A program made the position numbers and the translations under genes. 64,000 nt of DNA. It comes from Burkholderia sp. Bp8992 (lineage in GTDB: Bacteria; Pseudomonadota; Gammaproteobacteria; Burkholderiales; Burkholderiaceae). Shown here one piece after another: positions 37,131-52,885 of the stretch. Each line of letters begins with the position of its first letter. Positions within the stretch are counted from its first letter, which is position 1. The notes under the pieces are model-generated. The model saw nothing but the letters and a program-made list of their open reading frames with translations. It ran no database searches and was not told where the DNA came from. The stretch lies in NCBI RefSeq assembly GCF_003853705.1, contig NZ_QTQI01000004.1:248001-312000 (forward strand). Direction: 5' to 3'.

Positions 37131-37151
37131 CGGGCGGCGCCGTACGCGCCG

Positions 37152-37826
37152 TCAGGCGCGGCGCAAAAACCGCATCCGGATCGAATCGAGTTGGGCGGGC
37201 AGCCGGCGCGATCGGGCGCGCCGCCGCGGCAACGCGGCAAACCCGAGCCGTTCGTACAGCGCGCGGGCGCGCACGTTGCGGGTCAGCACGTCGAGCACAA
37301 CTTCGCGGCTGCCGTCGGCCGGCAACGCGCCGGAATCGAGCGCATCGCGGAACAGCGCACTGAAGATACCCGTGCCGCGCTGCCGTTCGTCGGTCGCGCA
37401 ATGCGCGACGAGGATCTGCGAACGCTTCGGCGCCGGGAGTTCCGTTTCGAGGATCAGCCCGCGCAGCAACTGGCCGATCGTGCGGCGCACGCCGAAGAAG
37501 CGCGCGAGTGCCCACACGACATGCACGTCGTCGAACATCGTCCGCCGCCCGTCGTGAATCGCCATCAAGGCAAGCACGGTGCCATCGTCGTCAACCGCGA
37601 CGCGATGCCGGCGCCACGAGAAGCGCCCGTGACGCGACCGGAATGCCTGCTGCAGAAACGCGATGCAGCGCGCGTCGCTTTCGCCGAGAAAGAAGCCGAA
37701 TTCGGCCACGCCGGACGCAAATACGAGCGGCCCGCACGCAGCCGCATCATCCGCATCGGCCGCGCGAAACCGCGCGGCCCCACCAGCGCGCGGGACCGCC
37801 CGCGCAAACGCGGCGGCCTGCGTCAT
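37152..37826 (-). CDS. GNAT-family N-acyltransferase at the end of the capsule PKS operon
   Basis: 224 residues. The acyl-CoA-binding motif is VAHCATDERQRGTGIFSALFRDAL (R/QxxGxG pattern) and a typical GNAT end is NVRARALYERLGFAAL. The start overlaps the wcbT stop (ATGA, 37823-37826), so it belongs to the PKS-LpxC-oxoamine synthase operon. In Caulobacter the enzyme that N-acylates long-chain bases (bacterial ceramide synthase) is a GNAT protein. Here an N- or O-acylation of the oxoamine product is the natural reading, but it is inference. No membrane segment. Confidence 0.75.
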   Translation of the reverse strand: MTQAAAFARAVPRAGGAARFRAADADDAAACGPLVFASGVAEFGFFLGESDARCIAFLQQAFRSRHGRFSWRRHRVAVDDDGTVLALMAIHDGRRTMFDDVHVVWALARFFGVRRTIGQLLRGLILETELPAPKRSQILVAHCATDERQRGTGIFSALFRDALDSGALPADGSREVVLDVLTRNVRARALYERLGFAALPRRRARSRRLPAQLDSIRMRFLRRA

Positions 37827-39151
37827 GCGCTGCGTCCCGCCAGCCGCGACAACACATTAACCGTCCGGCTGATCTGCTCCGGCTCGTGCGTCGAGCAGAT
37901 GAAGAAGCGCAGCCGCGCTGCCTTTTCCTCGACGGCCGGATAGAAGATCGGCTGCACGTTGATCCCTTCGTCGAACATCGCATTCGCCCACTGCGCGGCC
38001 TTCAGCGAACTCCCGGTGATCACCGGCACGACCGCATAGCCCGCGCTCGTGCCCGTATTCAGCCCGGCAGCACGCGCTTCGGTCAGGAACTGCCGCCCGC
38101 GCGCCTGCAGCTGCGCGACGCGCGCCGGCTCGGCCTGCAGGCGTTCGAGCGCGGCCAGCGACGCCTCGGCGAGCGTCGGCGCGAGCCCGACGCTGTACAG
38201 GAAGCCCGGCGCCAGATGGCGCAGCATGTCGACGAGCGGCTGGCAGCCGGCGATGAAACCACCGCAGCCGGCCAGCGTCTTGCTCATCGTGCCCATCCAC
38301 ATGTCGACCTGGTCGGGCGCGACGCCGCAATGCTCGCGGATACCCTTGCCGGTCGCGCCGAGCACGCCGAGCGAATGCGCCTCGTCGACCAGCAGGAACG
38401 CGCCGTGGCGCGTCTTCACGTCGACGAAGCGCTGCAAGTCGGGGAAGTCGCCGTCCATGCTGTACAGCCCCTCGATCGCAATCAGCACGTGCCGGTATTC
38501 GCGGCGCACGCGCGACAGCAATTCGTCGAGCGCCTGCCAGTCGTTGTGCGCGAAGCTCAGCCGCTTCGCGCCGCTCAGCTGCGCACCCTGCACGATGCTG
38601 TTGTGCGCGAGCGCATCGTGGACGACCAGGTCGCCCGGGCCGAACAGCGCGCCGATCACGGTCACGTTGGTCGCGTGGCCGCTCACGAACGCGACGCAGT
38701 CGTCGGTTTCGTAGAACGTGGCCAGCGCGCGTTCGAGATCGCGCTGCACCGGGCGTTCGCCCGCGACCATCCGGCTCGCCGATGCCGACGTGCCGTAGCG
38801 GTCGATTGCGGCTTTCGCGCGCGCGGACACGTCCGGATCGCCGGCCAGGCCGAGATAGTTGTAGTTCGCGAAGTTCAGGTATTCGCGGCCGCCGATCTGC
38901 GTCGTCGCGCCGGCGACGCCGTCGTGCACACGGAAAAACGGCGAGTCGACACGCAGCTTCTCGCCCATCTCGCGCATGATCCGGACCTGCTGATACTGCG
39001 GCATCGACTCGAAGCGGCTGCGCGCCGACGCGGTCTGCGCAGCCGGCGTGCCGGGCACGCCCGGCGCCGCCGCGGCGTCGGTCGCGCGCTCCAGTTGCCG
39101 TTTCAGCGCTTTCGCCGCCAATTGCTGGCGAAGATGCTCTCCCAGTGCCAT
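37823..39151 (-). CDS. wcbT: PLP-dependent alpha-oxoamine synthase (AONS/serine palmitoyltransferase type), WcbT-like
   Basis: 442 residues. The family condenses an acyl thioester with an amino acid, releasing CO2, to give an alpha-amino ketone. PLP lysine Lys291 is in GTMSKTLAGCGGF, with DEAH (256-259) and His159 in VSGHATN. YLNFANYNYLGLAGDP (91-106) is the usual substrate-site strand. About 85 residues precede the core, longer than BioF. There are no biotin genes nearby. It follows an acyl-making PKS that lacks a release domain. The symbol follows the B. pseudomallei capsule locus from memory. Confidence 0.82.
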   Translation of the reverse strand: MALGEHLRQQLAAKALKRQLERATDAAAAPGVPGTPAAQTASARSRFESMPQYQQVRIMREMGEKLRVDSPFFRVHDGVAGATTQIGGREYLNFANYNYLGLAGDPDVSARAKAAIDRYGTSASASRMVAGERPVQRDLERALATFYETDDCVAFVSGHATNVTVIGALFGPGDLVVHDALAHNSIVQGAQLSGAKRLSFAHNDWQALDELLSRVRREYRHVLIAIEGLYSMDGDFPDLQRFVDVKTRHGAFLLVDEAHSLGVLGATGKGIREHCGVAPDQVDMWMGTMSKTLAGCGGFIAGCQPLVDMLRHLAPGFLYSVGLAPTLAEASLAALERLQAEPARVAQLQARGRQFLTEARAAGLNTGTSAGYAVVPVITGSSLKAAQWANAMFDEGINVQPIFYPAVEEKAARLRFFICSTHEPEQISRTVNVLSRLAGRSA

Positions 39152-39215
39152 TGCTTCCTTCGCTGTATCTCGAAAAGGCGCTATGTTACGCCGCGTATTT
39201 TTAAAAAGCGTGGTG

Positions 39216-40133
39216 TCACGCGTCGGAAAACTCGGCCCACTGCCATGCGTCCGGCGCAGCCAGCAGCGCATCGACCAGCCGGAAATTCATCTCGTGGCTC
39301 GGCCGCAACGCGCTCACGCGCGCCAGCAGCGGCGCGCCCGCCAGCGCGAGATCGCCGACCAGGTCGAGCACGCGGTGCCGGACGAATTCCTCCGGCAGCC
39401 GCATCCCGCCCAGCACGCGATTGCCGACGATGGACGCGGTGCACGACGGCCGCGCGCCGCGCAGGATCGGCACACCGCGCAGATAGCCTGCGACGATCGC
39501 CGGCACGGCCCACTTCACACGCCCGTACGAGCGCGACGGCGCGATTTCGGTTTCGAACGCAGCCGGCGTGAGCGCGCCGTCCCAATGCATGTCGCCGAAG
39601 CCGCGCAGGTCGTTGCGCACGCTCAGCTCGTAACGCGGCGCCGGCTCGATCCGCATCTCGCGCCGCTGGTCGCCGTCACCGTCCGTGACGACGACGGGCC
39701 GCAGCACGCGGATGAAGCGCTTCGGCGCATCGAGCGCGACGCGGCCGCACGCGCGGATCGCGTCGACCCACGGCGTTGCGCTGCCATCGAGAATCGGCAC
39801 TTCCTCCGCATCGAGTTCGACGATCGCATGATCGATCTCGCACGCGAGCAGCGACGCGAGCAGATGCTCGATCGTGCGCACGCCGACGCCATCGGCATTG
39901 CGCAGCATCGTGCAGAGCGGCTGCGCGCGGCGCAGCGCGGGATCGACCGGCAGCGTCGCAAGCGTGCGCCCGTGCTCGATGCGACGGAACGCGATGCCCG
40001 TCACGCCGTCTTCCGGACGCGCGGGCAGAATCCGCACACCGACCCGGCGCCCCGTGTGCAACCCGTGCCCGTCGATCGTCAGCGGACGTGCCAGCGTGCC
40101 CTGACGCGCCGCCCAGCCGGCCGGCGCGCTCAC
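39216..40133 (-). CDS. wcbS: LpxC-type deacetylase paralogue, WcbS-like
   Basis: 305 residues, the same length as E. coli LpxC, the zinc enzyme that deacetylates UDP-3-O-acyl-GlcNAc. Zinc and catalytic residues are kept: Glu89-His90 (RTIEHLLAS), His253 and Asp257 (EFVRHRVLDLVGD) and His280 (LRPSHEMN). PILDGSA (113-119) is also present. The segment before it differs (SRSYGRVK where LpxC has a TFGF-type loop). The start is a GTG overlapping the PKS stop (GTGA, 40130-40133) with GAGG upstream. The housekeeping lpxC normally lies in the ftsZ cluster, so this is a second, specialised copy. Confidence 0.85.
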   Translation of the reverse strand: MSAPAGWAARQGTLARPLTIDGHGLHTGRRVGVRILPARPEDGVTGIAFRRIEHGRTLATLPVDPALRRAQPLCTMLRNADGVGVRTIEHLLASLLACEIDHAIVELDAEEVPILDGSATPWVDAIRACGRVALDAPKRFIRVLRPVVVTDGDGDQRREMRIEPAPRYELSVRNDLRGFGDMHWDGALTPAAFETEIAPSRSYGRVKWAVPAIVAGYLRGVPILRGARPSCTASIVGNRVLGGMRLPEEFVRHRVLDLVGDLALAGAPLLARVSALRPSHEMNFRLVDALLAAPDAWQWAEFSDA

Positions 40134-43100
40134 CGCGCGACCTCGAGCGTCGGCGACGCATGCCCGGCGACAGGCGCCTGCGGTGTATCGAGCATCGCGC
40201 GCGCTTCGCCGTCGATCGCATGCTTCGCGGCGAGCGCCGCGACGGCCTCGTGCGCGGCATCGGTTGCCGACGCGCCATCGCAACCCGCATCGGCCGACGC
40301 GCCGATCGAATCGACGATGCGCGCGGCCAGCGTCGTCACCGACGCGCCCTCGGCAATCGCCATCACCGACAGCTTGACCTCGAACGCTTCCTCGACCGCG
40401 AGACCGAGTTCCATCCCCATCAGCGAATCCATGCCCATGTCGAGCACCGACTTGTCGAGCGCGATGCGATCGGGCGTCATGTGCAGGATCCGCGCGATCT
40501 GCGCCTGCAGCGTCCGCGCCACCAGCGCGACCGCTTCGTCGCGCGGCAACGCGAGCACCTCTTCGCGCAGCTGCGTGCCGCCGTCGCGCGCATCGCCGCC
40601 GCTCGCGTTCGATTGCAGCAGCGAATACCGGCGCGCCTTCGCGGCCGGCATGCCGCGCGCGACCGCGTGCCAGTCGAGCCGGACCACGGCTTCGCCGGCC
40701 GCGCCCGCGACCAGCGTGCGCTCGAGTGCAACCATCGCCTCGTCGGACGTGATCGACGCACCGCCGATCCGCGACTGCAGCGCTTCACGTGTATCGGCGT
40801 GGCGCGCGAGGAAACCGACGTCCTCGAGCGGCCCCCAGGCCATGAACGTGCCCGGCAACCCTGCCGCGCGGCGATGTTCGACGAGCGCTTCCAGGAACGT
40901 GTTGGCCGCGACGTAGTTCGACTGCCCCGGATTGCCGAGATAGGTCGTCGCCGACGAATAGACCACGAACAGGTCGAGCGGCAGCCCGCGCGTCGCGCGA
41001 TGCAGGTTCCATGCGCCGGCCACCTTCGGTGCGAGCACCGCGGCCATGCGTGCATCGTCGAGATTGCGCACGAGGCCGTCGTCGATCGCCATCGCGGAAT
41101 GCAGCACGCCCTTCAGCGGCGCGCCACGCCGGACGATCGCGGCAATCATCGCGTCGACCGCCGCGGCATCGGTCACGTCGCACGACACGACGTCGACGGT
41201 GACGCCCAGCACGTCGCGCCAGCATGCGACTTCGTCGCATGCCGCGGCGGCGAGTTCGCCGGAGCGGCTCGCCAGCGTCAGCCGGCGTGCGCCGCGCTCG
41301 ACCATCCAGCGCGCGCTCGCGAAACCGAGCCCGCCCGTGCCGCCGACCACCAGGTACGCGCCGTGCGGATCGAGCACGAGCGAACCCGCGCCCGCGACGC
41401 CGCGCGTCGGCGCCGGCGTGCCGGACGGATAGGTCACGAGCACCTTGCCGATCTGGCGCGCCTGCTGCATGTAGCGGAATGCATCCTCGGCCCGTTCGGC
41501 GGGGAACGCGCGATACGGCAGCGGATGCAGCACGCCTGCCGCGAACAGCGCCATCACTTCGCCGAACAGGCGTTCGGTCAGCTCCGGCAACGCGCCCATC
41601 AACTGGTCGGCATCGATGCCGAAATAGCTGATGTTGTTGCGGAACGGCCGCAGCCCGATATGGCTGTTCTCGTAGAAATCCCGCTTGCCGAGCTCGAGGA
41701 AACGGCCGAACGGACGCAGCGTGTCGATGCTGCGCACCATCGCTTCACCGGCCAGCGAGTTCAGCACGATGTCGATGCCCTGCCCGCCAGTCATCGCGCG
41801 GATCTCGTCCGCGAACGCGAGGCTGCGCGAATCGAGCACGTGGTCGGCGCCGAGCAGGCGCACGAACTCGCGCTTCTCGTCGCTGCCGGCCGTCGCGAAC
41901 ACTTCCGCGCCGAAGTGGCGCGCGAGCTGGATCGCGGCGATCCCGACGCCGCCCGCGCCGCCGTGCACGAGCACGCGTTCGCCGCGGCGCAGCCGCGCGA
42001 GTTCGACGAGCGCGTAATACGCAGTGAAGAACGTGGTCGGCACGGTCGCCGCTTCCTCGAACGACAGGCGTTCGGGCTTCAGCGCGATCGCCTGCGCGCG
42101 CGTCCTGACGCGCGTCGCGAACGATGCCGGCGCGAAGCCGAGCACCGCGTCGCCCGGCGCAAATGCGGTCACGGCGGGGCCGACCCGCACGACGCGGCCG
42201 GACAGCTCCATGCCGATCGTCGCGCCCGCGAAGCCGGTCTCGACCGCTTCATCGGACAGGAGCCCCATCGCATACATCACGTCGCGGAAATTCAGCCCGG
42301 TGGCAACCGGCTCGATTTCCACCTCGTCCTCGCCCAGCGCGCTTTCGGGCAACGCAAACCATTCGAGATTGCGCAACGAGCCCGGTGCGTCGAACGCGAG
42401 CACCGACGCGCGTGCGATCGCGCCATCGTCGCGAGCCGCCGCCTGTGCAGCCGTCAGCATGCGCGGCACCAGCCGCCCGCGTGCGCTCAGGACGACTTCT
42501 TCCTCGACCGCCGAGCCGGTCAGCTCGCGAATCAGCGCATCGGGAATCCCGGCCGCCGCGCGATCGACGTCGATCAGGCGGCACGCGAGTTCGGGATGCT
42601 CGTTCGCGAGTACGCGACCGAGGCCCCACAGCGTCGCCTGCTCCGGGTGCGCATTCGCGGCCCCGGCAAACGGCGCGCCGCCGCGCGTGACGACGGTCAA
42701 TCGCGTGGCCGCGTGCGGCTGCGCACCGAGCGCGCGGACGAGTGCCGCCAGCGCGATCGCGCCGTAACGTTGCGCGGCCATCAGGCCGTCGCCCGTCGCG
42801 GCTTCCGCGAGCGGCGTCTCCGGTGCGCAGAACACGACGTGCGCCGGCTGCCCGGACGGCAGCGACGCGATCGCGTCGGCCGCATGCGTGATGTCCACGA
42901 TATCGGCCGGATAGCCCGCCAGCGCAAGCGCATCGGCCAGTTGCCCGGCGAAACCGTTGAGCGCATCCGGCGCGTGCATCACGAGCCATTGTTCGTTGCG
43001 TGCCAGCGTATCGAGATCGCTCGGGTCGCCGCCACGTTGAGCGGCGATCGTGCTCGCGGGATTGCGCGCGACGACGAACGTCGGCGTGCCGTCCAGATCG

Positions 43101-46100
43101 AGCGACTGCTCGACATGCCGCACGACGTCGACGTAGCCCGCGCGTGCGAGTGCCGCCTCGAGATCAGCCGGTGCCAGCGGCGCGGGCGCATCGACTTCCG
43201 TCGACGCCGCCTGCGGGGCGAACACGATGTCGGAGAAGCGGCCGCGGCGCGATTCGGCCAGCAGCAGCAATCCGCCCGGCGCCAGCCATGACCGCATCGC
43301 ATTCAGCGCATCAATCACATCGTGACGGCCGCTCAACGCACGGTTCGCGACGATCAGGTCGTAAGGCCCGGCATCGTCGGCCGACAGCGACAGCCGCTCG
43401 CCCGATTGCAGTGCCACCGTGCGCACCGCCACTTCCGCGTCCGTATCGAACCCGGCCAGCTGGCCGGCCGTCGCGGCGATCGTGTGATCGCAGCGCGCGG
43501 CCGCGAGATGCATGCCGAGCGTCTGCAGCACGTCGCCGTCCGTCGCGCCCAGTTCGAGCACGCGCAGCCGGCGCGCCGGCTGCCACGCGTCCACCGCCTG
43601 CTCGACGCCGGCCGTCAGCAGTGCGTGCACGTGCTGCCAGGTCGGCGATGCGGCAAGGAGTTGCTCGACCAGGCTGTGCCCGGTCGGCGACAGCCAGCGG
43701 GTGCCGTCCTTCGCGCCGCTCAGCACGTCGCGCAACGCCGCGCCGCAATGCGCAAGCAACGTCAGCTCGGCCACGTGCCCCGGCGATTCGGCCAGCAGCC
43801 CGCGCCACAGCTCGTCGAGCGGCGGCAACGCCGCGCACGCCGCGTCGTCGCGCACGAGGTGCGCGCCGTCGCGATGAGCCAAGCCGTCTTCGACGAGCAT
43901 GTCGGCAAGACGTGCCGCCAGCGCCGCGCGCCCGGGCGCCGGCTGCCATGCAGCAGCGAATGCGCCGAGCGCATCGAATGCACGCAGCACGTAGAGGCTC
44001 GCGAGCACATCGAGCAGCGGCAGGATTTCGGTCAGATGCTGTGTGCGGCGGCCATCGTCTTCGGCCGTATCGAGCCGGGCGACCGCTTGCGCGAGCAGCG
44101 CGTCGGGCGCCGGCAGGCCCGCGGCATCGACGTCGCCCGGCAGCGGCACCTCTTCGAGGCGGTACACGAAGCGCGCGGGCAGGTTCTGCCGGCGGCCGAC
44201 GAGATCGACGCGCCGGAACCGGCAAGCGCCGAGCCGCGCGACGATCGCGCCCTGCGCGTCGAGGAATTCGAAATGCGCGACGACCGAATGCGGGCTGCGC
44301 CGGTCGATCCGCGCGAGCACGCGCGCGACCGTATCGCCGCGCAGATAGTCGACCCGGCCGATCTGCACCGGCACATAAGCCGGATGTTCACCGTCGCGCG
44401 CGTGCGCGGCAAGCAGCGCGAACAGCGGATGAAACCCGCTGTCCATCAGCGCCGGATGCAGCAGATAGGCGGACAGCGCCCGTGCATCGCCGCATGCGGC
44501 GGGTGCCGAGACGTCGGCCAGCGCCGCATCGTCGCCCGCGGCGACCCGCACGGTGCGGACCCAGCGGAACGCCGGCCCGTACGTGAGGCCGATCGCCGCG
44601 GTGTTCGCGTACAGCGTGTCGCCGTCGGCGGCCGGCAGCGCGAGCAGGCGCTCCAGCGTGCCGGACGGCACGACGCGCGCCGCGCCGAGCGCGCTGCCGC
44701 TTTCCAGCATCCGCCCCGTCACGTTCAGCGTCCATGCGCCGTCGGACATCCGGTCGCGCGTCTCGATCGTGAAGGTCGCGGTGCGCGGCTCGATCACGAG
44801 CCGGAACAGCTTCGCCTGCTGCGGCTGGAACACGACCGGTGTGCGGATCTCGACGTTTTCGAGTGCCGCGTCCGTCGTGTCGAAGAACGTGCGCGCCGCG
44901 GCGAGCGCCATTTCCACATAACCCGCGCCCGGGAATGCCACGCCGCCATCGACCACGTGATCGGCCAGCATCGGCAGCTTCGCCGGATCGAGCTGGTTTT
45001 CCCAGCCGAACGCATGTTCGTGCAGGCGATAGCCGAGCAGCGGATGTTCGCGGCGGCGATTGACGAGGCCGTAGCCTTCGACGGTCGGCGTCAGCCAGAA
45101 GCGGTCGCGCTGCCACGGATAGGACGGCAATGCCGCACGCGACGTGCCCGGTGCAAAGCGGTCGGGATCGACGCTCGCGCCGTGCGCGATCGCCGCGAGA
45201 ATCGCCTGCCGCAGCGTCGCCGCGCTGCCGTGATCGCGCTTGAGCGTCGGCAGCACCGCGCCGGTCGCGCCGGCTACGGCGAACGCCTGCTTCACGTACG
45301 TGCGCAGGATCGAATGCGGCGACACTTCGACGAACAGCCGGACGCCCTGCTCGATCAGGTATGCGATGCCGTCGCCGAAGCGCACGGGCTCGCGGATATT
45401 GCGCCACCAGTAACGCGCGTCGAGCTTGGTGCCGGAAAGCGCGCCGCCGGTCACGGTCGACACGAACGCGCCGTTGCCCGGTTGCGGTCGCAGGCTGGCC
45501 AGTTCGGCCAGCACGACCGGCTCGATGCGATCCATGTGGCTGCTGTGGAACGCATAGTCGAGATCCAGCATCTGGAAGAACTTGCCGCTGCCGCGCAGCG
45601 CCGCCTCCAGCGCCTGCAAACCCTGCAGTTCGCCCGCGAGCGTGACGGCATCGGGACTGTTGATGCCGGCGATCTCGACCCGGCGCGCGAGCCCGTGGCG
45701 CGCGATCAGCTCGCGTGCCGCCGCATCGCCGATGCCGACGGCCGCCATCCGGCCGCTGCCGCGTGTCATCGCCTGCGCGCGGCTGCGGATCTTGATCACG
45801 CGCACCGCGTCGGCGAGCGACAGCGCGCCCGTCACCCACGCCGCGGCGATTTCGCCGACGCTATGGCCGATCGCCGCGTCGTAACGCATCCCGCGCGCAT
45901 CGATCACGCGGATCATGCCGACCTGGATCGCGAACAGCAGCGGTTGCGCGTTCTCCGTCGCGGCGAGCCATTCGGCGCCCGCGCCGGCCAGCCATTCCGC
46001 GCTCGGGCCGCCGCGCATTACGTCGACGAGCGACGGGCTGCCGTCGGCACACCACAGCGCATCGACTTCGTCGAGCGCCGCGCGGAAGACGGCGTTCTCC

Positions 46101-47767
46101 GCATAGAGTTCGTTGCCCATTCCGACCCACTGGCAACCGTTGCCCGAGAACACGAGCGCGGTGCGCAGCGCGTCGGCGGGTGCCTGGCCGGTTGCCACGC
46201 AGGCCGGCAGGCCTTCCTGTGCCGGTTGGGCCAGTGCGGCAAGCGCCGCGCGGCCTTCGGCCACGTCGGCCGGTGCGACGATCGCGCGATGTTCGAGCCA
46301 TTGGCGGCGACGCGCGGCCGCGGCGGCAAGCGCCTGCCAGTCGCCGCCGTTGTCGAGCATCGCCAGATAGCGGCCCGCGAGTGCGCCGAGCGCAGTCGCG
46401 CTGCGCGCGGTCAGCGCGAGCGGAGACAATTGCGTTTGAACCGGCTCGGGCGCTGCCGTCGACACGTCGTTTGCGACCGGCGCCTCGGTCAGCACGACGT
46501 GTGCATTCGTGCCGCCGAAGCCGAACGAGTTGACGCCAACCGTCAGCGGCGCGTCGCCCGCGTCGAGCGGCATGTAGCGATCGACGACGCGCAGGCGCCC
46601 GCCGTCGAAATCGATGCCGGGATTGGGCGTGACGAAGTGCAGCGAGCGCGGCACCGCGCGATGCTTCAGGCACAGCACGGCCTTCAGCAGGCCGGCCATG
46701 CCGGAAGCCGTTTCGAGGTGGCCGATGTTGGTCTTCACCGAACCGATGAGCAGCGGACGGTCCGCCGGGCGCTCGCCCGACACGACGTCGATCAGCGCGC
46801 GCGCCTCGATCGGATCGCCGACTGCCGTGCCGGTGCCGTGCGCCTCGAGGTAGGCGAGCGACTGCGGATCGATGCCGGCGCGCGCGTACACGCTGCGCAG
46901 CAGCGACGCTTGCGCGGCCGCGCCCGGCACGCTGATGCCGCCCGGCGAATGGCCCACGGAGTTCACGCCGGAGCCGGCGATGACTGCATGGATCGTGTCG
47001 CCGTCGGCGAGTGCGCGATCCAGCGGCTTGAGCAGCACGAATGCGCCGCCTTCCGAGCGCACATAGCCGTCGCCGGTCGCATCGAACGCGCGGCAACGGC
47101 CGCGCGGCGACAGCATCGACGCCTTGGAGAAGCTGACGAAACCGAACGGATGCAGCAGCAGGTTGACGCCGCCCGCGAGCGCCATCTCGGCTTCGCCGGA
47201 CTGCAACGCCTTGACGGCCTGGTGGAGTGCGACGAGCGACGACGAGCAGGCCGTGTCGACGGACATGCTCGGGCCGCGCAGGTCGAACAAGTAGGACACG
47301 CGGTTCGACGCGATGCTCAGGGTGTTGCCGGTCGCCGAATACGGATCGATCACGTTCAGATCGTCCATGTTGCGGTTGCCGTAATCCATGCTGGCGGCGC
47401 CGACGAAGACGCCGCAGTTGCTGCCGCGCATGTCGGCCGGGCGCACGCCCGCGTCTTCGAACGCTTCCCACGCGAGTTCGAGCAGCAGGCGCTGCTGAGG
47501 GTCCATCTGGGCCGCTTCGCGCGGGGAAATGCCGAAGAACGCGGCGTCGAAGCCGGCGACGTTGTCGACCACGCCGGCCGCGAACGTATAGCTCTTGCCC
47601 GGTTCGCGCTTGGACGGGTGCTGGTAGAAATCGGTGCCGAAGCGGTCGGCGGGGATTTCGGTCACTGCGTCGCGTTCGTCGCGCAGGAGTTGCCAGAAGT
47701 CGCCAAGATTGTTAGCGCTCCCGGGAAACCGACAAGCCACCCCAATTATTGCAATCTTACTGTTCAT
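40130..47767 (-). CDS. wcbR: single-module highly reducing type I polyketide synthase, WcbR-like
   Basis: 2545 residues. Order: KS 1-430 (Cys174 in DTACSSS, His310, His350); AT 537-865 (Ser636 in GHSVGE, YAFH 738-741, malonyl-like); DH 905-1190 (His937...Pro946, Asp1109); a methyltransferase-like region 1245-1570 with a degraded SAM motif (LELGATDGD, 1404-1412); ER 1795-2115 (GGAGGVG 1936-1942); KR 2135-2330 (GGTGGLG 2142-2148, Tyr2285); ACP 2405-2490 (Ser2448 in DMGMDSLM). There is no thioesterase or reductase domain, so the chain must be released by another protein, probably the oxoamine synthase. A complete reductive loop means a saturated, fatty-acid-like chain. It starts 3 bp after wcbQ. 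Confidence 0.92.
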   Translation of the reverse strand: MNSKIAIIGVACRFPGSANNLGDFWQLLRDERDAVTEIPADRFGTDFYQHPSKREPGKSYTFAAGVVDNVAGFDAAFFGISPREAAQMDPQQRLLLELAWEAFEDAGVRPADMRGSNCGVFVGAASMDYGNRNMDDLNVIDPYSATGNTLSIASNRVSYLFDLRGPSMSVDTACSSSLVALHQAVKALQSGEAEMALAGGVNLLLHPFGFVSFSKASMLSPRGRCRAFDATGDGYVRSEGGAFVLLKPLDRALADGDTIHAVIAGSGVNSVGHSPGGISVPGAAAQASLLRSVYARAGIDPQSLAYLEAHGTGTAVGDPIEARALIDVVSGERPADRPLLIGSVKTNIGHLETASGMAGLLKAVLCLKHRAVPRSLHFVTPNPGIDFDGGRLRVVDRYMPLDAGDAPLTVGVNSFGFGGTNAHVVLTEAPVANDVSTAAPEPVQTQLSPLALTARSATALGALAGRYLAMLDNGGDWQALAAAAARRRQWLEHRAIVAPADVAEGRAALAALAQPAQEGLPACVATGQAPADALRTALVFSGNGCQWVGMGNELYAENAVFRAALDEVDALWCADGSPSLVDVMRGGPSAEWLAGAGAEWLAATENAQPLLFAIQVGMIRVIDARGMRYDAAIGHSVGEIAAAWVTGALSLADAVRVIKIRSRAQAMTRGSGRMAAVGIGDAAARELIARHGLARRVEIAGINSPDAVTLAGELQGLQALEAALRGSGKFFQMLDLDYAFHSSHMDRIEPVVLAELASLRPQPGNGAFVSTVTGGALSGTKLDARYWWRNIREPVRFGDGIAYLIEQGVRLFVEVSPHSILRTYVKQAFAVAGATGAVLPTLKRDHGSAATLRQAILAAIAHGASVDPDRFAPGTSRAALPSYPWQRDRFWLTPTVEGYGLVNRRREHPLLGYRLHEHAFGWENQLDPAKLPMLADHVVDGGVAFPGAGYVEMALAAARTFFDTTDAALENVEIRTPVVFQPQQAKLFRLVIEPRTATFTIETRDRMSDGAWTLNVTGRMLESGSALGAARVVPSGTLERLLALPAADGDTLYANTAAIGLTYGPAFRWVRTVRVAAGDDAALADVSAPAACGDARALSAYLLHPALMDSGFHPLFALLAAHARDGEHPAYVPVQIGRVDYLRGDTVARVLARIDRRSPHSVVAHFEFLDAQGAIVARLGACRFRRVDLVGRRQNLPARFVYRLEEVPLPGDVDAAGLPAPDALLAQAVARLDTAEDDGRRTQHLTEILPLLDVLASLYVLRAFDALGAFAAAWQPAPGRAALAARLADMLVEDGLAHRDGAHLVRDDAACAALPPLDELWRGLLAESPGHVAELTLLAHCGAALRDVLSGAKDGTRWLSPTGHSLVEQLLAASPTWQHVHALLTAGVEQAVDAWQPARRLRVLELGATDGDVLQTLGMHLAAARCDHTIAATAGQLAGFDTDAEVAVRTVALQSGERLSLSADDAGPYDLIVANRALSGRHDVIDALNAMRSWLAPGGLLLLAESRRGRFSDIVFAPQAASTEVDAPAPLAPADLEAALARAGYVDVVRHVEQSLDLDGTPTFVVARNPASTIAAQRGGDPSDLDTLARNEQWLVMHAPDALNGFAGQLADALALAGYPADIVDITHAADAIASLPSGQPAHVVFCAPETPLAEAATGDGLMAAQRYGAIALAALVRALGAQPHAATRLTVVTRGGAPFAGAANAHPEQATLWGLGRVLANEHPELACRLIDVDRAAAGIPDALIRELTGSAVEEEVVLSARGRLVPRMLTAAQAAARDDGAIARASVLAFDAPGSLRNLEWFALPESALGEDEVEIEPVATGLNFRDVMYAMGLLSDEAVETGFAGATIGMELSGRVVRVGPAVTAFAPGDAVLGFAPASFATRVRTRAQAIALKPERLSFEEAATVPTTFFTAYYALVELARLRRGERVLVHGGAGGVGIAAIQLARHFGAEVFATAGSDEKREFVRLLGADHVLDSRSLAFADEIRAMTGGQGIDIVLNSLAGEAMVRSIDTLRPFGRFLELGKRDFYENSHIGLRPFRNNISYFGIDADQLMGALPELTERLFGEVMALFAAGVLHPLPYRAFPAERAEDAFRYMQQARQIGKVLVTYPSGTPAPTRGVAGAGSLVLDPHGAYLVVGGTGGLGFASARWMVERGARRLTLASRSGELAAAACDEVACWRDVLGVTVDVVSCDVTDAAAVDAMIAAIVRRGAPLKGVLHSAMAIDDGLVRNLDDARMAAVLAPKVAGAWNLHRATRGLPLDLFVVYSSATTYLGNPGQSNYVAANTFLEALVEHRRAAGLPGTFMAWGPLEDVGFLARHADTREALQSRIGGASITSDEAMVALERTLVAGAAGEAVVRLDWHAVARGMPAAKARRYSLLQSNASGGDARDGGTQLREEVLALPRDEAVALVARTLQAQIARILHMTPDRIALDKSVLDMGMDSLMGMELGLAVEEAFEVKLSVMAIAEGASVTTLAARIVDSIGASADAGCDGASATDAAHEAVAALAAKHAIDGEARAMLDTPQAPVAGHASPTLEVAR

Positions 47768-47770
47768 CTT

Positions 47771-49288
47771 TTATGTCGCTTTCTCGGATGCGTGCGGTTC
47801 TTCCGCGCGATTTCCGTCATCTTGTACCACATGCAAAAGTACCGAACCGAGCTCTTCGGCTGCCAGATTCCGGCATTCGGGAGTGTCTGTGCCGTAATTT
47901 CGCCAAATGAAGTAGTCGCTGTGTTGCGGGGTAACGCCCAGCTTCTGGAAAACATGAGGCAATGCGGGAACATGGTCGCCGTAAAAACAAACGACTGTTT
48001 CACGATCGCGGGTACGCAAATAATCGAGCAAGCGCCCGATCATTGCGTCTGCATTTTCAATGTGCCGCAGATATGCAGTCAGGTCGCGCCAGCAGGCATC
48101 TTCGCCAAGAGTATGCCTCGAAGACGATTCTCCAGGCAAAACCTGCTCGAGATGCAATGGGCCGTGGTTTTCCATCGTCATTGCGAAGATGAAGCGCGGC
48201 TCGCTCCGCGGTTCGTCCAGTACATCGATGACGGCATCCAGTACGGCCGAATCGGCAATATAGGGTCCGGCTCGCGGGGCGTCGGCAAAGCTTTCAATAT
48301 CCCGAAATATGTCGAATCCGAGCAGCGGAAAGACCCGATTCCTTCCGAAGAAGTCCGCATAGTACGGATGAATCGCGACAGTCGTATAACCGCCGCGCCA
48401 AAACCAGGCTGCAATCGTTGTACACGCGCGCCGTACGAAAGCGTAGGGGTAGAAACGGGCGTAGCCGAGACGCGCAGACGTCACTCCGCTCAGCATCGCA
48501 AACTCTGTACGCATCGTGTTCGCTCCCCAGGCCGGCACGAGCAGTTCACCGTGGTAGCTGGATTCCCGGCGCGCAATGTCCAGATTGCGGTAGTTCGCCG
48601 AATCGATCGCCGAGCCAAGACGCCTCGCGTCGAAATACGATTCGCTCTGGATCACGATCACATCAGGGCCCGCAGTCGGCGCGCCCGATGCGAACGGACC
48701 TGTCCGGGCAGCCTCTTCGAATGCGCGCAGCGTCGCGGGACGCAGGCCGTTCAGCAGATACGCAACGAATACGGCAAAAAATCCATGCCGCTGTTGGTCC
48801 GCGCCGGCATCCAGCGTAAGCGGCAAGCGTTTCGCCAACCAACAGGTCATGACCGCGGACGCCACGAGGAGCGCCATAACCGGCCGGAGCCCCCCGTCGA
48901 ACGGCCGCTCAGCGAAGAAGCCGCTCAGCAGCGCCGCGACGCCAATTACGATTCCGATCACCTTGCCGACGCTCAGAAACGGCAGGTATAAGCGGGGATG
49001 GGCGAACAACTGGCTGAACAGACTCAGATCGGTAAAAACAAACGGCTCACGCAGCGACTCATACTTTGCATTGCTCACCGTTGCCAACAGGCCGACCAGC
49101 GCGACCGCAATGCAGGCGGAAAACAGGAGACGCCGGGTCACGATCAGCATCGCACCGGTCAAAAGCATGAGCGCGAAGACATGCAACATGAGTGCAATAC
49201 CGGAACGTCGTCGCGCACGGGGTAGCGCAACCGCGTCCAGCGCGAACGACGCGCCGAGCGCGGCCGCGAGCGACAGGCTAACGCTCAA
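47771..49288 (-). CDS. wcbQ: LtaS/OpgB-like membrane phosphoglycerol transferase (alkaline-phosphatase fold), WcbQ-like
   Basis: About 505 residues. Roughly five N-terminal membrane segments occupy the first 180 residues, with KYESLREPFVFTDL as in OpgB/LtaS. The periplasmic domain follows, with metal-site VIVIQSESYFD and the likely nucleophile Thr in GANTMRTEFAML. CFYGDHVPALP is the C-terminal metal motif. Relatives transfer phosphoglycerol from phosphatidylglycerol to glycans. TTG 49288 has GGGAG 7 nt upstream and begins 1 nt after the wcbP stop; ATG 49336 overlaps wcbP by 47 bp and is the alternative. It sits between capsule and PKS genes, so it may modify the capsule or its anchor. Confidence 0.78.
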   Translation of the reverse strand: MSVSLSLAAALGASFALDAVALPRARRRSGIALMLHVFALMLLTGAMLIVTRRLLFSACIAVALVGLLATVSNAKYESLREPFVFTDLSLFSQLFAHPRLYLPFLSVGKVIGIVIGVAALLSGFFAERPFDGGLRPVMALLVASAVMTCWLAKRLPLTLDAGADQQRHGFFAVFVAYLLNGLRPATLRAFEEAARTGPFASGAPTAGPDVIVIQSESYFDARRLGSAIDSANYRNLDIARRESSYHGELLVPAWGANTMRTEFAMLSGVTSARLGYARFYPYAFVRRACTTIAAWFWRGGYTTVAIHPYYADFFGRNRVFPLLGFDIFRDIESFADAPRAGPYIADSAVLDAVIDVLDEPRSEPRFIFAMTMENHGPLHLEQVLPGESSSRHTLGEDACWRDLTAYLRHIENADAMIGRLLDYLRTRDRETVVCFYGDHVPALPHVFQKLGVTPQHSDYFIWRNYGTDTPECRNLAAEELGSVLLHVVQDDGNRAEEPHASEKAT

Positions 49289-49289
49289 G

Positions 49290-50075
49290 CTAGCGCTCCC
49301 GTCCCGGCAGATAAGACAGTCGGCCAAGTATCGCATCGCCCAGCCGCGCCGGCAGCAGCGTCAACAAGCTCATGCCGAGCGCGAGCATCCCCGGAAACGC
49401 AATGACGGCCCGCCGCGCAGCCAGTTTCCGGCGAATATGGCCAGCGGCCCTGTCTGCCGACCACATGAACGGCTTGCCCCCTGGAAAGACGTCACTCATC
49501 GCGGTCCTGACGAAACCGGGCAACACGATCGCAAGATGCACGCCTTTCCGCGCCAGCAGGGGCCGCACCGAATCGCCGTACGCCTTGAGTGCGGCCTTGC
49601 TTGCGCAATAAGCGGGCGAAATCGCCATGCCGCGTATCGCAGCAATGGAACTCACCAGCCCGATCTGTCCGCTCCGACGCTCCCGCATGCGCGCGATCAC
49701 CGGCAGTACCGCATGCATCGCCCCGTAGAAATTGGTGTCGACGACTGCCGCCATGCGATCAAGCTCCTCCCAATCGCTATCCGAATCGAGCGTACTGGCC
49801 ACCCCGGCGTTAGCAATCAGCAGGTCTATCGGATAAGTGTCGTCGAACTGCCATAACCACGCTCGCATCGCCTCGGCGTCTCGCACGTCGACCTGTGCCG
49901 TGACAACCCTCGCGCCGAGCGCGCGACAGGCATCGGCGCAGGCATCGAGTCGTCGTACGTCCCGACCAACGAGCCCCAATACCACACCGGGCGCCGCATA
50001 GACGGTCGCGAGCGAACGCCCGATGCCGGCACTTGCGCCGGTAATGACAACGTGACGAGGCGCCGCACTACCCAT
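49290..50075 (-). CDS. wcbP: short-chain dehydrogenase/reductase of the capsule operon, WcbP-like
   Basis: 261 residues of the classical SDR family. GITGASAGIG-type cofactor motif (VVITGASAGIGRSLA), NAGVAS, Ser in GLVSSIAAIRG and YCASKAALKAY. A hydrophobic C-terminal stretch (MLALGMSLLTLLPARLGDAI) may attach it to the membrane, as in 3-ketosphinganine reductases and related lipid SDRs. ATG 50075 overlaps the end of the kpsS-like gene by 8 bp. If the oxoamine synthase product is a 3-keto base, this enzyme is the obvious reductase; that is inference. Confidence 0.82.
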   Translation of the reverse strand: MGSAAPRHVVITGASAGIGRSLATVYAAPGVVLGLVGRDVRRLDACADACRALGARVVTAQVDVRDAEAMRAWLWQFDDTYPIDLLIANAGVASTLDSDSDWEELDRMAAVVDTNFYGAMHAVLPVIARMRERRSGQIGLVSSIAAIRGMAISPAYCASKAALKAYGDSVRPLLARKGVHLAIVLPGFVRTAMSDVFPGGKPFMWSADRAAGHIRRKLAARRAVIAFPGMLALGMSLLTLLPARLGDAILGRLSYLPGRER

Positions 50076-51273
50076 GCGCGGCCTCGAGACGAACAACTGC
50101 TCCGGCAACCGCCATTTCGATGCCCGTGCGTGTATAGAAGTCGCCGTTGATCTGTGTGTGATGGACCACGTAGTCCAGAAACGCCTGGTACAGGTTCATG
50201 TCGGGCGGAGGCGCGTCTGGCCAGAAGTCGTCGAGCTCACCCTGCCATGTCAGTCCCGGCATGTTGTAGATCGCCGTACCGAGCGCGATCAACGGGCGGC
50301 GATGATGCAGGGCCGAAAGCCCGACGGTGCTGTTAACGACGACGACCGCACGTGCATGTTCGAGCAGGGTGGGCAAGTGACCGGCGTTGATGAACCGCAA
50401 ACGGTCGGCCACGGCGAACTCGTGCGCAAGTTTCATCGCGTATTGGCGATAATCGACGAGCCCCGTGTCGAGCGGGTGGTTCTTGATGACGAGCCACGTA
50501 TCCGCCGGCGCGTGGCGGGCGAATGATCGAATTACCTTGGCGATCGCGTCGCGGACACCGTCAAACGGTGAATGAACAATTATCTGCGCATCCGAATTCA
50601 ACTGGAGCGGGAAGAGATAGTACCGTTGGCCGACGTTGAGGAGCTCGCGCGTCACGTGCTCGGCGTCACGATGATGGCGGCCCTGGCAAAGTGCGCGCGT
50701 GGCAAGACCAGCGTATTCCATGATGCCGTTTCTCGGGCGGTGGCTGCGGTAATGTGGGAACCGTGCCGCGTAAAGCATGTTCGCCGCGCGATAACGGATA
50801 TCGTGATACGCGCGCTCGCTGAGGTTGTAACCGGTGGACTCGCCGACCGGGCTTGGCGGAATCATGCCCCGCTGGTCGAGGTACCAGGCCGGATCGCGCG
50901 GCAGCGACGAACGTCCGTTAACCCCGCCTCTCTCGAGAGTGAGCCAATGAGGACGGACATAGCCCTCTTCAAAAACATGGACCCGCAGGCCGAACGTCTG
51001 CGAAACCGGATGCATATGGCGGTGAATTTCACGACAATCGCCGAACATGATGACGTCTGTGAATTCACCTGCTCGCGTGATCTCCGTGTACCAGTCGGAC
51101 AAGTCGTTCGGCTTGCCGTCGTAGTCCCACGCATGTTTCGCTCCGCTGTACAGGAGATCCCCGCCACAAAAATTCACCTTGCGTACCGCATGTCCGCGTT
51201 CCCGCAAAGCCGCAGAAAGGTGACTGAAAAACGGCGAGGCCGTCCCTTGCAGGACAAGGAATGAGCGAGGCAT
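50068..51273 (-). CDS. wcbO: KpsS-like capsule lipid-linker Kdo transferase/export protein, WcbO-like
   Basis: 401 residues. KpsS/LipB signature features: FLVLQGTASPFFSHLSAAL at the start, FEEGYVRPHWLTLE, and IVHSPFDGV plus WLVIKNHPLDTGLVDY and NSTVGLSALHHRRPLIALG in the C-half. In E. coli and Neisseria KpsS adds the first beta-Kdo residue to lyso-phosphatidylglycerol, starting the capsule anchor. Here it opens the minus-strand operon that continues through the PKS. No KpsC partner is visible in the window. Confidence 0.85.
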   Translation of the reverse strand: MPRSFLVLQGTASPFFSHLSAALRERGHAVRKVNFCGGDLLYSGAKHAWDYDGKPNDLSDWYTEITRAGEFTDVIMFGDCREIHRHMHPVSQTFGLRVHVFEEGYVRPHWLTLERGGVNGRSSLPRDPAWYLDQRGMIPPSPVGESTGYNLSERAYHDIRYRAANMLYAARFPHYRSHRPRNGIMEYAGLATRALCQGRHHRDAEHVTRELLNVGQRYYLFPLQLNSDAQIIVHSPFDGVRDAIAKVIRSFARHAPADTWLVIKNHPLDTGLVDYRQYAMKLAHEFAVADRLRFINAGHLPTLLEHARAVVVVNSTVGLSALHHRRPLIALGTAIYNMPGLTWQGELDDFWPDAPPPDMNLYQAFLDYVVHHTQINGDFYTRTGIEMAVAGAVVRLEAAHG

Positions 51274-51727
51274 CTGGTCTGGTCAAACGGCGCATAAGGC
51301 CCCCTCGAAATACAGCGGTGACGCCCGCGATGCTTCGATGCAATAAGCCTGTAATGGTTATATGAGGTTCGTGGTCCCGGCAAGGATCGAAGAATACCTC
51401 ATTACAGCTGAAATCAATATAGGAATGGCGAAAAATGCGGCAAGATGTGGTCACAATCACAACACGATGGCGTCTTGCACATCCGGTGGCTATAATCAGC
51501 GGCCTTGGCATGATCTGCGCGTATCTGCCGCAGAGATATGTGCCAACCGAGCACGGCGGCACCCTACTGCGACGAGGCGTCCCTGAGCGCACCAGCAGGC
51601 TGCCAACCCGTTTGAAACGTTCTCCGTAGAGTTGGCGACACATTTTTACGGATATTTTTTGCCCTTCGTCACGAGAACGCCACAAAGTGGTGAACCGTGC
51701 AAAGGGACCAAACAGCCTGGAAAAGAG
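51274..51727. promoter_or_regulatory. divergent promoter region between capsule operons
   Basis: This 454-bp, relatively AT-rich stretch separates wcbO (minus) from the KpsE-like gene (plus). A perfect TATAAT lies at 51491-51496 on the plus strand, but the nearest good -35 (TTGCAC, 51475-51480) is only 10 bp away, so promoter use is uncertain. On the minus strand TATAAC (51357-51362) with TTGCCG 15 bp upstream is a weaker candidate. No JUMPStart/ops element was seen. An in-frame TTG at 51632 could extend the KpsE-like gene into this gap. Confidence 0.45.
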
Positions 51728-52885
51728 TTGGATAACGTATCTAGCAGGACGGCGACATCGGGATCGCCAACAGGAACCAAGAAAGGCCTGATAGAGCAGA
51801 TCAAGAAGATCAATCGGCTCTTTGCGCTAACGGTGCTCGTGCCCACCACGATCGCAACGGTCTATTATGGGCTTGTGGCATCTGATGTCTATGTTTCGGA
51901 ATCGCGTTTCGTAGTCCGCAGCCCCCAACGACAAAACCAGACAAGCGTAGTCGGCGCTCTGCTTCAAGGCACCGGGTTCTCACGGGCCCAAGATGACACT
52001 TACCCCGTAGTCGACTATATTCAGTCACGCGATGCACTTGCCGAGTTGAATCGCGGTAACTATATCCTTAATTCCTACTCGAATCGGGGCGACATTATTA
52101 GCCGATTCAACACAAGCTTCGACGATAGCTTCGAAGCCTTGTGGAAATACTACGGCAAGCACGTCGTATCGGTGGAGTTTGATTCCACGTCTGCAATTAC
52201 TACGCTGCAAGTTCGAGCGTTTACGTCGAAAGACGCTGAAAAGATAAACCAGACGCTTCTGGAAATCAGCGAGCGCCTCGTAAACCGGATGAACCAGCGG
52301 GCAGCGGCGGATACCGTAGAGTTTGCCCAGCGTGAGGTCAACCAGGCCGCGGCAAAGGCAAAGGATGCTGCAGCGGCACTGGCAGCCTACCGAAACTCAT
52401 ACACTGTGTTCGATCCAGAGAAGCAATCCGCGCTACAGCTCCAGCAGGTAACCAGCCTGCAATCGCAGATGTTCGCCGCGCAAACGCAGCTCATGCAACT
52501 GCAGTCCATTTCACCGCAAAACCCGCAAATTCCGGTGTTAAAGACGAACATCGAATCGATGCAGAAACAGATTCAGATTGCAACCGGTGGGGTAACTGGT
52601 GGCAAGGATTCGCTTTCACAGAAGGCCGCGAACTATGCGCGATTGCAGCTCGATGCGCAATTCGCGGACAAGCAACTTGCTTCGGCGATGACTGCATTGG
52701 AAAGCGCTCGAGGCGAAGCGGAACGGAAACAGCTTTATCTGGAAAGATTGGTGCAACCGAATGCACCGGATGTGGCAATAGAGCCCAAGCGACTTAAGTC
52801 CGTATTCGAGGTGTTCGCATTGGGAATGATCGCCTGGGGCGTCCTGAGCCTGCTGCTCGCCGGCGTGCGGGAACACCACGATTAA
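51728..52885 (+). CDS. wcbD: KpsE/BexC-type capsule export inner-membrane protein, WcbD-like
   Basis: 385 residues from the TTG at 51728. A membrane segment near the N-terminus (FALTVLVPTTIATVYYGLVA) is followed by SDVYVSESRFVVRSP, the family opening. A periplasmic coiled coil lies at about 190-330, and a second membrane segment at the extreme C-terminus (FEVFALGMIAWGVLSLLLAGV). It bridges the KpsMT exporter to the outer-membrane channel. A TTG at 51632 would add 32 residues without conserved sequence; neither start has a strong Shine-Dalgarno. Confidence 0.88.
   Translation: MDNVSSRTATSGSPTGTKKGLIEQIKKINRLFALTVLVPTTIATVYYGLVASDVYVSESRFVVRSPQRQNQTSVVGALLQGTGFSRAQDDTYPVVDYIQSRDALAELNRGNYILNSYSNRGDIISRFNTSFDDSFEALWKYYGKHVVSVEFDSTSAITTLQVRAFTSKDAEKINQTLLEISERLVNRMNQRAAADTVEFAQREVNQAAAKAKDAAAALAAYRNSYTVFDPEKQSALQLQQVTSLQSQMFAAQTQLMQLQSISPQNPQIPVLKTNIESMQKQIQIATGGVTGGKDSLSQKAANYARLQLDAQFADKQLASAMTALESARGEAERKQLYLERLVQPNAPDVAIEPKRLKSVFEVFALGMIAWGVLSLLLAGVREHHD

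What the first reader, a model, noticed from the sequence alone, without database searches (positions are those of the whole stretch)
37152..51273. Capsule operon that may build a sphingoid-like lipid
Seven minus-strand genes are nearly contiguous: KpsS-like, SDR, LtaS-like, reducing PKS, LpxC-like, alpha-oxoamine synthase, GNAT. Junctions are 8-bp overlap, 1 nt, 3 bp, 4-nt overlap, 64 bp and 4-nt overlap. A reducing PKS without thioesterase beside an alpha-oxoamine synthase is the logic of fumonisin/AAL-toxin backbones (Fum1/Fum8). An SDR for ketone reduction and a GNAT for N-acylation would complete a ceramide-like product. KpsS in the same transcript suggests the product is the capsule lipid terminus. 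Gene names wcbO-T exist in B. pseudomallei; a sphingoid-anchor role is my inference.
Basis: partly seen in the sequence, partly recalled or inferred. Interest (0 to 1): 0.92.

Follow-up and report, generated by a model that had tools for sequence, protein, structure and literature searches.

The report
Polyketide-made lipid anchor for capsules
A Burkholderia capsule gene cluster carries its own fatty-chain factory beside an enzyme that would turn the chain into an amino-lipid, probably the greasy foot that holds the capsule; the cluster type is known, but this reading of its chemistry would show what that foot is made of.

Summary
The window is from the Burkholderia cepacia complex. The operon is not a new kind: it matches the wcb genes and the rkp-1-type genes of Sinorhizobium meliloti (PKS, AONS, SDR, LtaS-like, KpsS), already described in print as making a lipid carrier or anchor. 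The PKS-to-AONS logic is well supported: the PKS lies just upstream of the AONS, or one LpxC-like gene away, in 79 of 80 loci; the AONS is fused to a PKS or to an ACP in two other lineages; and it forms its own clade outside serine palmitoyltransferase. 'Ceramide-like' is not supported: the GNAT is exchanged for other GNATs, an acyltransferase-like protein or a formyltransferase, which suggests a short N-cap. The methyltransferase domain looks degenerate. The LpxC-like gene is an operon-linked extra in 28 of 200 genomes of the family, substrate unknown. Best reading: a FAS-like PKS and an ACP-coupled AONS make a single-chain amino-alcohol capsule anchor. No chemistry has been shown.

The parts
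50068..51273 (-). KpsS-like (WcbO/RkpJ) beta-Kdo transferase, predicted to put the first Kdo on the lipid
   Evidence: Pfam Capsule_synth 366 bits; 279 bits to NCBIfam KpsS, under its cut-off of 600
49290..50075 (-). SDR (WcbP/RkpH), predicted ketone reductase; ATG at 50075
   Evidence: Pfam adh_short; junction check
47771..49288 (-). LtaS/GacH-type membrane phosphoglycerol transferase (WcbQ/RkpI), TTG start
   Evidence: Pfam Sulfatase; best solved relative GacH; catalytic E, T, R, H, D, H kept in 61-63 of 64 rows (residue roles recalled)
40130..47767 (-). FAS-like iterative type I PKS (WcbR/RkpA), KS-AT-DH-(degenerate MT)-ER-KR-ACP, no thioesterase match
   Evidence: Pfam; KS motif in 81 and AT serine in 82 of 82 rows, ER and KR motifs in nearly all
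43244..43630 (-). methyltransferase-like stretch of the PKS with an eroded SAM motif
   Evidence: strict ExGxGxG in 1 of 82 rows; 26 of 82, the window among them, keep the first and last G
40316..40513 (-). C-terminal ACP of the PKS, the predicted donor to the AONS
   Evidence: Pfam PP-binding; DSL serine in 82 of 82 rows
39216..40133 (-). second LpxC-like zinc deacetylase (WcbS position), GTG start; accessory
   Evidence: Pfam LpxC; catalytic residues in 51-52 of 54 rows, gaps in the rest; RHR in 52 of 54
37823..39151 (-). alpha-oxoamine synthase (WcbT/RkpG), ACP-coupled clade; ATG at 39151
   Evidence: Pfam Aminotran_1_2; tree; motifs
37152..37826 (-). GNAT, predicted to cap the amine of the AONS product
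   Evidence: Pfam Acetyltransf_1, weak, 28 bits; exchanged for other N-acyl- or formyltransferases elsewhere
51632..52885 (+). KpsE-like export protein (named by position and recalled likeness; no Pfam match)
   Evidence: relatives beside KpsM/KpsT relatives in other loci
52897..54338 (+). KpsM- and KpsT-like ABC exporter (52897-53688, 53685-54338)
   Evidence: Pfam ABC2_membrane and ABC_tran

Best explanation
The operon is the B. cepacia-complex form of the wcb/rkp-1 module and makes a dedicated lipid foot for an ABC-exported capsule. Proposed steps, all inferred from sequence: (1) the PKS works as an iterative fatty acid synthase and leaves a saturated, unbranched acyl chain on its own ACP; (2) with no thioesterase, the WcbT-type AONS takes the chain off the ACP by decarboxylative condensation with an amino acid (Ser, Ala or Gly, undecided), giving an alpha-amino ketone; (3) the SDR reduces the ketone to an amino alcohol; (4) the GNAT caps the amine with a short acyl group, a step done by a formyltransferase in other lineages; (5) the LtaS-like enzyme adds or exchanges a phosphoglycerol group; (6) KpsS, then KpsC, build the beta-Kdo linker, and KpsMTE exports the polymer. 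The LpxC-like enzyme is an accessory deacetylase of unknown substrate. Shown: gene content, order, family, active-site conservation, linkage and exchange of genes. Inferred: every reaction and the order of steps.
For: PKS just upstream of the AONS, or one LpxC-like gene away, in 79 of 80 loci. AONS fused to the C-terminus of a complete reducing PKS module in Planktothrix and to AMP-ligase-ACP in L037. Separate AONS clade of 35 rows split from SPT, Kbl-like and BioF-like rows at 99% SH-aLRT (quick tree), with SPT-like motifs SR, EGxYSM, DEAHS, SK in most rows. The nearest genome has three AONS at E 1e-5: this one, Kbl and BioF; SPT model NF047599 in 0 of 120 genomes of its family (two other SPT models were not searched). 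Strict SAM motif absent in 81 of 82 PKS rows. One class of N-acyl- or formyltransferase in 64 of 91 loci, never two, none seen in 27; in the same bacterial family a formyltransferase stands in for the GNAT in L136. AONS, GNAT and SDR together without PKS, LtaS or KpsS hits in L036. LtaS, SDR and KpsS all found in 16 of 91 fetched loci, 14 of them within 2.6 kb. KpsC in 15 of 91 fetched loci and in the nearest genome; KpsF and KdsB in the Pseudomonas plasmid cluster. Prior statements of a lipid carrier or anchor role.
Against: No chemistry for any of these enzymes was found in what I could read. The LtaS catalytic domain should face the periplasm (by homology, recalled), while KpsS works in the cytoplasm, so the order of steps 5 and 6 is awkward. 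KpsS, SDR and most of LtaS follow the variable capsule region (64-77% DNA identity to G001) while PKS to GNAT are 85-96% identical, so the SDR does not travel strictly with the AONS. In Pseudomonas the GNAT lies 3-6 kb from the AONS in at least 6 of 8 loci, near LtaS, and in L125 the formyltransferase is 7 kb away. No N-cap gene was seen in 27 of 91 loci, S. meliloti among them. The LpxC-like gene has no natural place in the scheme. Clade members L036, L037 and L039 have no full PKS beside them. Residue comparison does not fix the amino acid: the SPT Arg378 position is not even constant among SPTs. The window's own SAM motif keeps two glycines, so methylation is not excluded.
Confidence: 0.6

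Rival explanations
1. Ordinary (lyso)phosphatidylglycerol-Kdo anchor, with the PKS-AONS lipid used elsewhere (free lipid or export helper) and the LtaS-like enzyme decorating the polysaccharide with glycerol phosphate.
For: The beta-Kdo-phosphatidylglycerol terminus is described as conserved, Vi being the sole known outlier (passage of PMC9597891); WcbQ is described as able to move glycerol onto the polysaccharide chain (passage of PMC11766843); KpsS and KpsC are kept.
Against: E. coli-type capsules with KpsS and KpsC manage without PKS and AONS genes (recalled), so the module must add something; it is kept with KpsS in alpha-, beta- and gammaproteobacterial loci; rkp-1 is reported as involved in export of the polymer (PMC4881576 passage).
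Confidence: 0.15
2. One reading: sphingoid base from serine, N-acylated with a second long chain by the GNAT.
For: SPT-like active-site motifs; an SDR and a GNAT in the operon.
Against: Formyltransferases and unrelated GNATs seem to fill the same role; the AONS fails the SPT cut-off, 287 of 500 bits, and lies outside the SPT clade.
Confidence: 0.08
3. Vi-like glucosamine anchor: the LpxC-like enzyme deacetylates an acylated UDP-GlcNAc, the GNAT or formyltransferase re-caps that amine, and the PKS supplies acyl chains.
For: LpxC-like with intact catalytic residues, beside the AONS in 28 of 28 genomes of the family that have it; Vi capsule ends in an acylated HexNAc.
Against: 12 of 16 formyltransferase loci show no LpxC-like gene in the fetched stretch; 5 of 33 AONS genomes lack it; the formyltransferase lies within 80 nt of the AONS hit in 15 of 16 loci, not with the LpxC-like gene; the AONS would have no role.
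Confidence: 0.07
4. The PKS-AONS genes make a separate secreted amino-lipid or natural product that merely sits in the capsule locus.
For: AONS of the same clade occur in clusters without capsule genes in view (Planktothrix; L038 with MMPL and LolA-like genes).
Against: Repeated linkage to KpsS, and often to KpsC or Kps export genes, in distant lineages; capsule phenotypes reported for rkp-1; wcbQ, wcbS and wcbT listed under capsule in a B. pseudomallei lung Tn-seq screen.
Confidence: 0.1

Closest known systems
rkp-1 region (rkpA, rkpGHIJ) of Sinorhizobium meliloti
   Same: Colinear PKS, AONS, SDR, LtaS-like, KpsS and KpsF on pSymB of strain Ak57; lipid carrier or anchor role proposed in print
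   Different: No LpxC-like or GNAT match there; proteins about 29-50% identical. Which gene is rkpA, G, H, I or J is my assignment by likeness; the literature puts rkp-1 on the chromosome of S. meliloti, this copy is on a record named pSymB
wcb genes (wcbO-wcbT) of Burkholderia capsule clusters
   Different: Another capsule type here (GDP-mannose dehydratase and reductase-like genes); I fetched no B. pseudomallei sequence, so gene-by-gene identity to wcbO-T is recalled
Fumonisin/AAL-toxin type PKS plus AONS (Fum1/Fum8, recalled)
   Same: Reducing PKS without thioesterase, chain released by an AONS
   Different: Bacterial, degenerate methyltransferase, capsule setting
Serine palmitoyltransferase of Rhodobacteria (NF047599)
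   Same: Same fold family, several active-site motifs; a special ACP is reported for SPT
   Different: Separate clade and below the family cut-off; here the ACP lies inside the PKS
Vi antigen glycolipid anchor (VexE)
   Same: An ABC-exported capsule with a terminus other than phospholipid-Kdo
   Different: Vi lacks the Kdo linker; KpsS is kept here
Prodigiosin PigH (two carrier domains, then SerT)
   Same: AONS-type domain fed by carrier proteins
   Different: Pigment pathway, no long chain

Membership tests
wcb/rkp-1 capsule lipid module | PKS, AONS, SDR, LtaS-like and KpsS in one cluster | tested here: met
   S. meliloti L121 has the five in a row
wcb/rkp-1 capsule lipid module | loss of the genes abolishes capsule or its export | not testable with these tools
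   reported second-hand for rkp-1
serine palmitoyltransferase | passes an SPT family cut-off | tested here: not met
   287 of 500, 278 of 640, 231 of 670 bits
serine palmitoyltransferase | lies in the SPT clade | tested here: not met
   capsule group and SPT group each one side of a branch, 100% (quick tree; 41 rows in neither group not counted)
serine palmitoyltransferase | uses L-serine | not testable with these tools
   motifs inconclusive
PKS-AONS chain release (Fum1/Fum8 logic) | reducing PKS without thioesterase beside an AONS | tested here: met
   fusion
PKS-AONS chain release (Fum1/Fum8 logic) | working C-methyltransferase (fumonisin chains are methylated, recalled) | tested here: inconclusive
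   strict SAM motif in 1 of 82 rows, not the window's own, which keeps two of its glycines
housekeeping LpxC | passes TIGR00325 | tested here: not met
   169.5 of 187.25 bits; but 624.9 of 423 to NF009666, also named a deacetylase of this type; a second LpxC match is in each of the 28 genomes
LpxC-type zinc deacetylase | catalytic and zinc residues | tested here: met
   (residue roles recalled)
LtaS | passes the NCBIfam LtaS cut-off | tested here: not met
   19.6 of 970 bits
phosphoglycerol transferase (LtaS/GacH/MdoB type) | catalytic Thr and metal ligands | tested here: met
group 2-type ABC capsule with beta-Kdo linker | KpsS and KpsC | tested here: inconclusive
   KpsS in the window, under the NCBIfam cut-off; no KpsC match in the window; a KpsC relative about 21 kb from KpsS in G001
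ceramide synthesis | long-chain N-acylation | not testable with these tools
   exchange with formyltransferases speaks against it

The most novel reading that the evidence does not exclude
Capsules of many alpha-, beta- and gammaproteobacteria are not held by phosphatidylglycerol but by a dedicated single-chain amino-alcohol lipid, built by a FAS-like PKS, released by an ACP-coupled AONS clade distinct from SPT, and N-capped by interchangeable acetyl- or formyltransferases: a second exception after Vi to the conserved phospholipid terminus, and one that keeps the Kdo linker.
Probability: 0.45. Interest if true: 0.8.

Novelty: new variant of a known kind. Interest (0 to 1): 0.6.

Why it matters
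The terminus of ABC-exported capsules is described as conserved, with Vi the sole known outlier (passage of PMC9597891). For rkp-1 a special lipid carrier or anchor has been proposed, and little is said to be known about the Wcb proteins. A concrete chemical prediction, an N-capped long-chain amino alcohol, makes the question directly testable in harmless rhizobia, and would add an anchor class and an ACP-coupled AONS family to capsule biology.

Tried and rejected
Rejected: that WcbT is a serine palmitoyltransferase. Rejected: that a missing Arg378 tells the amino acid; 5 of 6 SPT rows lack it too. Thought unlikely, not excluded: a methyl-branched chain. Rejected: that the LpxC-like gene is the housekeeping lpxC. 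Led nowhere: structure prediction of the GNAT, so no fold search was made; solved relatives of the GNAT are weak, and KpsS has none by sequence at E 0.001. The SDR's two nearest solved relatives say nothing about a keto-sphinganine reductase. The careful tree was not finished; one search gives the quick tree. L126 was first scanned on the wrong strand and then on the right one. Papers: 10 searches, of which I saw listings of 4 to 20 papers each; none of those listed, by title and start of abstract, nor any passage I read, states a PKS-AONS or sphingoid-type capsule anchor. Most subscription papers are not held. Seen as passages only: PMC3908369, PMC12220298, PMC5507470, PMC4881576, PMC9386255, PMC2945791, PMC9597891, PMC11766843, PMC3870968, PMC4631991, PMC1403797 (nothing there on an rkp-1 lipid), PMC3557214. 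Kiss 1997, Mueller 2009 and Cuccui 2012 (its DOI recalled) were not held; the first two are known here second-hand.
Full report
WHAT IS THERE. Seven minus-strand genes run almost without gaps from 51273 to 37152. Families: KpsS, SDR, LtaS-type sulfatase fold, type I PKS, LpxC, AONS, GNAT. All six junctions of the finding are right to the base. On the other side of KpsS, plus-strand export genes follow (KpsE-like by position, KpsM, KpsT), then glycosyltransferases and GDP-mannose dehydratase and reductase-like genes. The AONS is 94-99% identical to those of ten B. cepacia-complex-type loci, L040-L049, so I place the window in that complex; its own assembly is not held, and the nearest genome, G001, shares 21% of its 31-letter words.

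IT IS A KNOWN KIND OF OPERON. The pSymB record of S. meliloti Ak57 carries PKS, AONS, SDR, LtaS-like, KpsS and KpsF in a row, which I take as rkpA, G, H, I, J by likeness. [quoted passage not shown] PMC3908369 states that most wcb and rkp genes are homologues. PMC11766843 calls wcbPQRT of Cobetia lipid biosynthesis and says little is known about the proteins. So 'capsule lipid' is prior art. In the listings and passages I saw, nobody states that the PKS and AONS work together or that the product is sphingoid-like.

THE PKS FEEDS THE AONS. A genome collection gave 159 relatives of the AONS, of which the best 80 were kept. In 35 the PKS lies directly upstream on the same strand (23-263 nt between hits), in 44 the LpxC-like gene lies between, and in one the contig ends. 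Many are near copies from Burkholderiaceae; the rest are Pseudomonas, Thiotrichaceae, Thiobacillus and others. Alphaproteobacterial plasmids add Sinorhizobium, Shinella and Methylobacterium loci with PKS, AONS, SDR, LtaS-like and KpsS. Two further lineages have fused the AONS to a carrier protein: Planktothrix has KS-AT-DH-ER-KR-ACP-AONS in one protein of 2532 aa, and L037 has AMP-ligase-ACP-AONS. Clade members L036 and L039 have no full PKS in view. No thioesterase match was found in the PKS. KS, AT, ER, KR and ACP motifs are kept in nearly all of 82 rows, near copies included. The AT motif, mostly YAFH, suggests malonyl-CoA (recalled rule). The methyltransferase stretch has mostly lost its SAM motif: strict ExGxGxG in 1 of 82; 26 of 82 keep the first and last glycine, the window among them. 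A saturated, unbranched chain is the simplest reading.

WHICH AONS. It misses the NCBIfam cut-offs: BioF 336 of 426, Kbl 262 of 493, SPT 287 of 500; Pseudomonas, Sinorhizobium and Planktothrix members do the same. In a quick tree of 66 rows, 35 rows of this AONS stand apart from SPT, Kbl-like and BioF-like rows at 99%. At four active-site motifs (SR, EGxYSM, DEAHS, SK) most of the clade reads like SPT rather than Kbl or BioF; the residue after the PLP-stacking histidine is Asn in the commonest strings where the other groups have Ala (residue roles recalled). The nearest genome has three AONS at E 1e-5: this one, one over the Kbl cut-off, one over the BioF cut-off. SPT model NF047599 rang in 0 of 120 genomes of the family and 12 of 200 of the phylum, with E. 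coli and Caulobacter among the 14 controls ringing; the two other SPT models were not searched. The amino acid is not decided.

WHAT CAPS THE AMINE. In 91 loci (the 80, plus L033-L038 and L121-L125; L039, L120 and the G001 stretches were left out), the N-acyl gene is the window's GNAT type in 37, a Pseudomonas GNAT in 8, another GNAT in 1, a 2-oxoacid-dehydrogenase-type acyltransferase in 2, a formyltransferase in 16, none seen in 27, and never two kinds (tblastn E 1e-8). The window-type GNAT lies within 272 nt of the AONS hit in all 37, the formyltransferase within 80 nt in 15 of 16 (7 kb in L125), but the Pseudomonas GNAT lies 3-6 kb away in at least 6 of 8. Pfam confirms the formyltransferase of L136 but gives no match to the distant GNAT of L137. 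The formyltransferase triad is legible in most of 16 (N-x-H in 14, D in 15). In L036 an AONS sits with a GNAT and an SDR, with no PKS, LtaS or KpsS hit. Exchange of acetyl- for formyl-type enzymes beside the AONS argues for a short cap on its amine, and against a ceramide. Limits: flanks differ in length, near copies inflate counts, and S. meliloti shows no such gene.

THE LpxC-LIKE GENE. In 200 genomes of the family, 28 carry it (E at most 1e-100), all 28 among the 33 with this AONS, at adjoining coordinates, and each with a second LpxC match. Other loci with it: four formyltransferase loci (L088, L106, L109, L113) at 32-39% identity. Catalytic residues are intact in 51-52 of 54 rows with gaps in the rest, and RHR replaces the RHK of the solved LpxC shown (4mdt) in all 52 rows that cover it. 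It is an accessory; I have no good substrate.

KpsS, SDR AND LtaS. The three are found together in 16 of 91 fetched loci, 14 of them within 2.6 kb; many Burkholderiaceae stretches end inside LtaS, so the count is a lower bound, and G001 has all three. The LtaS-like protein keeps its catalytic residues in nearly all of 64 rows, and its best solved relative is the phosphoglycerol transferase GacH. No KpsC match is in the window; a relative lies about 21 kb from KpsS in G001, and 15 of 91 fetched loci have one. The Pseudomonas plasmid cluster adds KpsF and KdsB. A Kdo linker on a non-standard lipid is therefore the likely product. Topology is a problem: LtaS enzymes act outside, KpsS inside (recalled).

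A RECOMBINATION EDGE. DNA identity between the window and G001, L045 and L055 is 85-98% from 36500 to 48000 and then falls to 64-81% within LtaS, staying low through KpsS in G001 (L040 stays at 88% or more as far as its stretch reaches). The PKS-to-GNAT half looks like species core; KpsS, SDR and most of LtaS go with the capsule type. This speaks mildly against a fixed SDR-AONS partnership.

VERDICT. Observation confirmed; interpretation partly supported. The kind is known, the mechanism is a sharpened hypothesis at about 0.6, and no enzyme reaction is shown.

Noticed in passing
window 48000-49100: Sharp fall in DNA identity to related strains inside the LtaS gene, with G+C falling from about 71% at 44-46 kb to under 60% by 50 kb: a likely recombination edge between a conserved lipid half and a variable capsule half.
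   Followed up: partly
L122:5584-13182: Planktothrix plasmid protein with a complete reducing PKS module and the AONS in one chain, near a fatty acyl-AMP ligase and glycosyltransferases.
   Followed up: partly
   Followed up: partly
L085:12185-12760 and five like it: Chorismate-lyase-like gene next to the formyltransferase in Thiotrichaceae-type loci: an aromatic building block may enter there.
   Followed up: no
L098:12764-13804 and L123:13243-14286: PhyH-type dioxygenase beside the AONS in Pseudomonas, perhaps a hydroxylase of the lipid.
   Followed up: no
window 61193-63250: 685-aa protein with a DUF4214 match in the capsule region.
   Followed up: no
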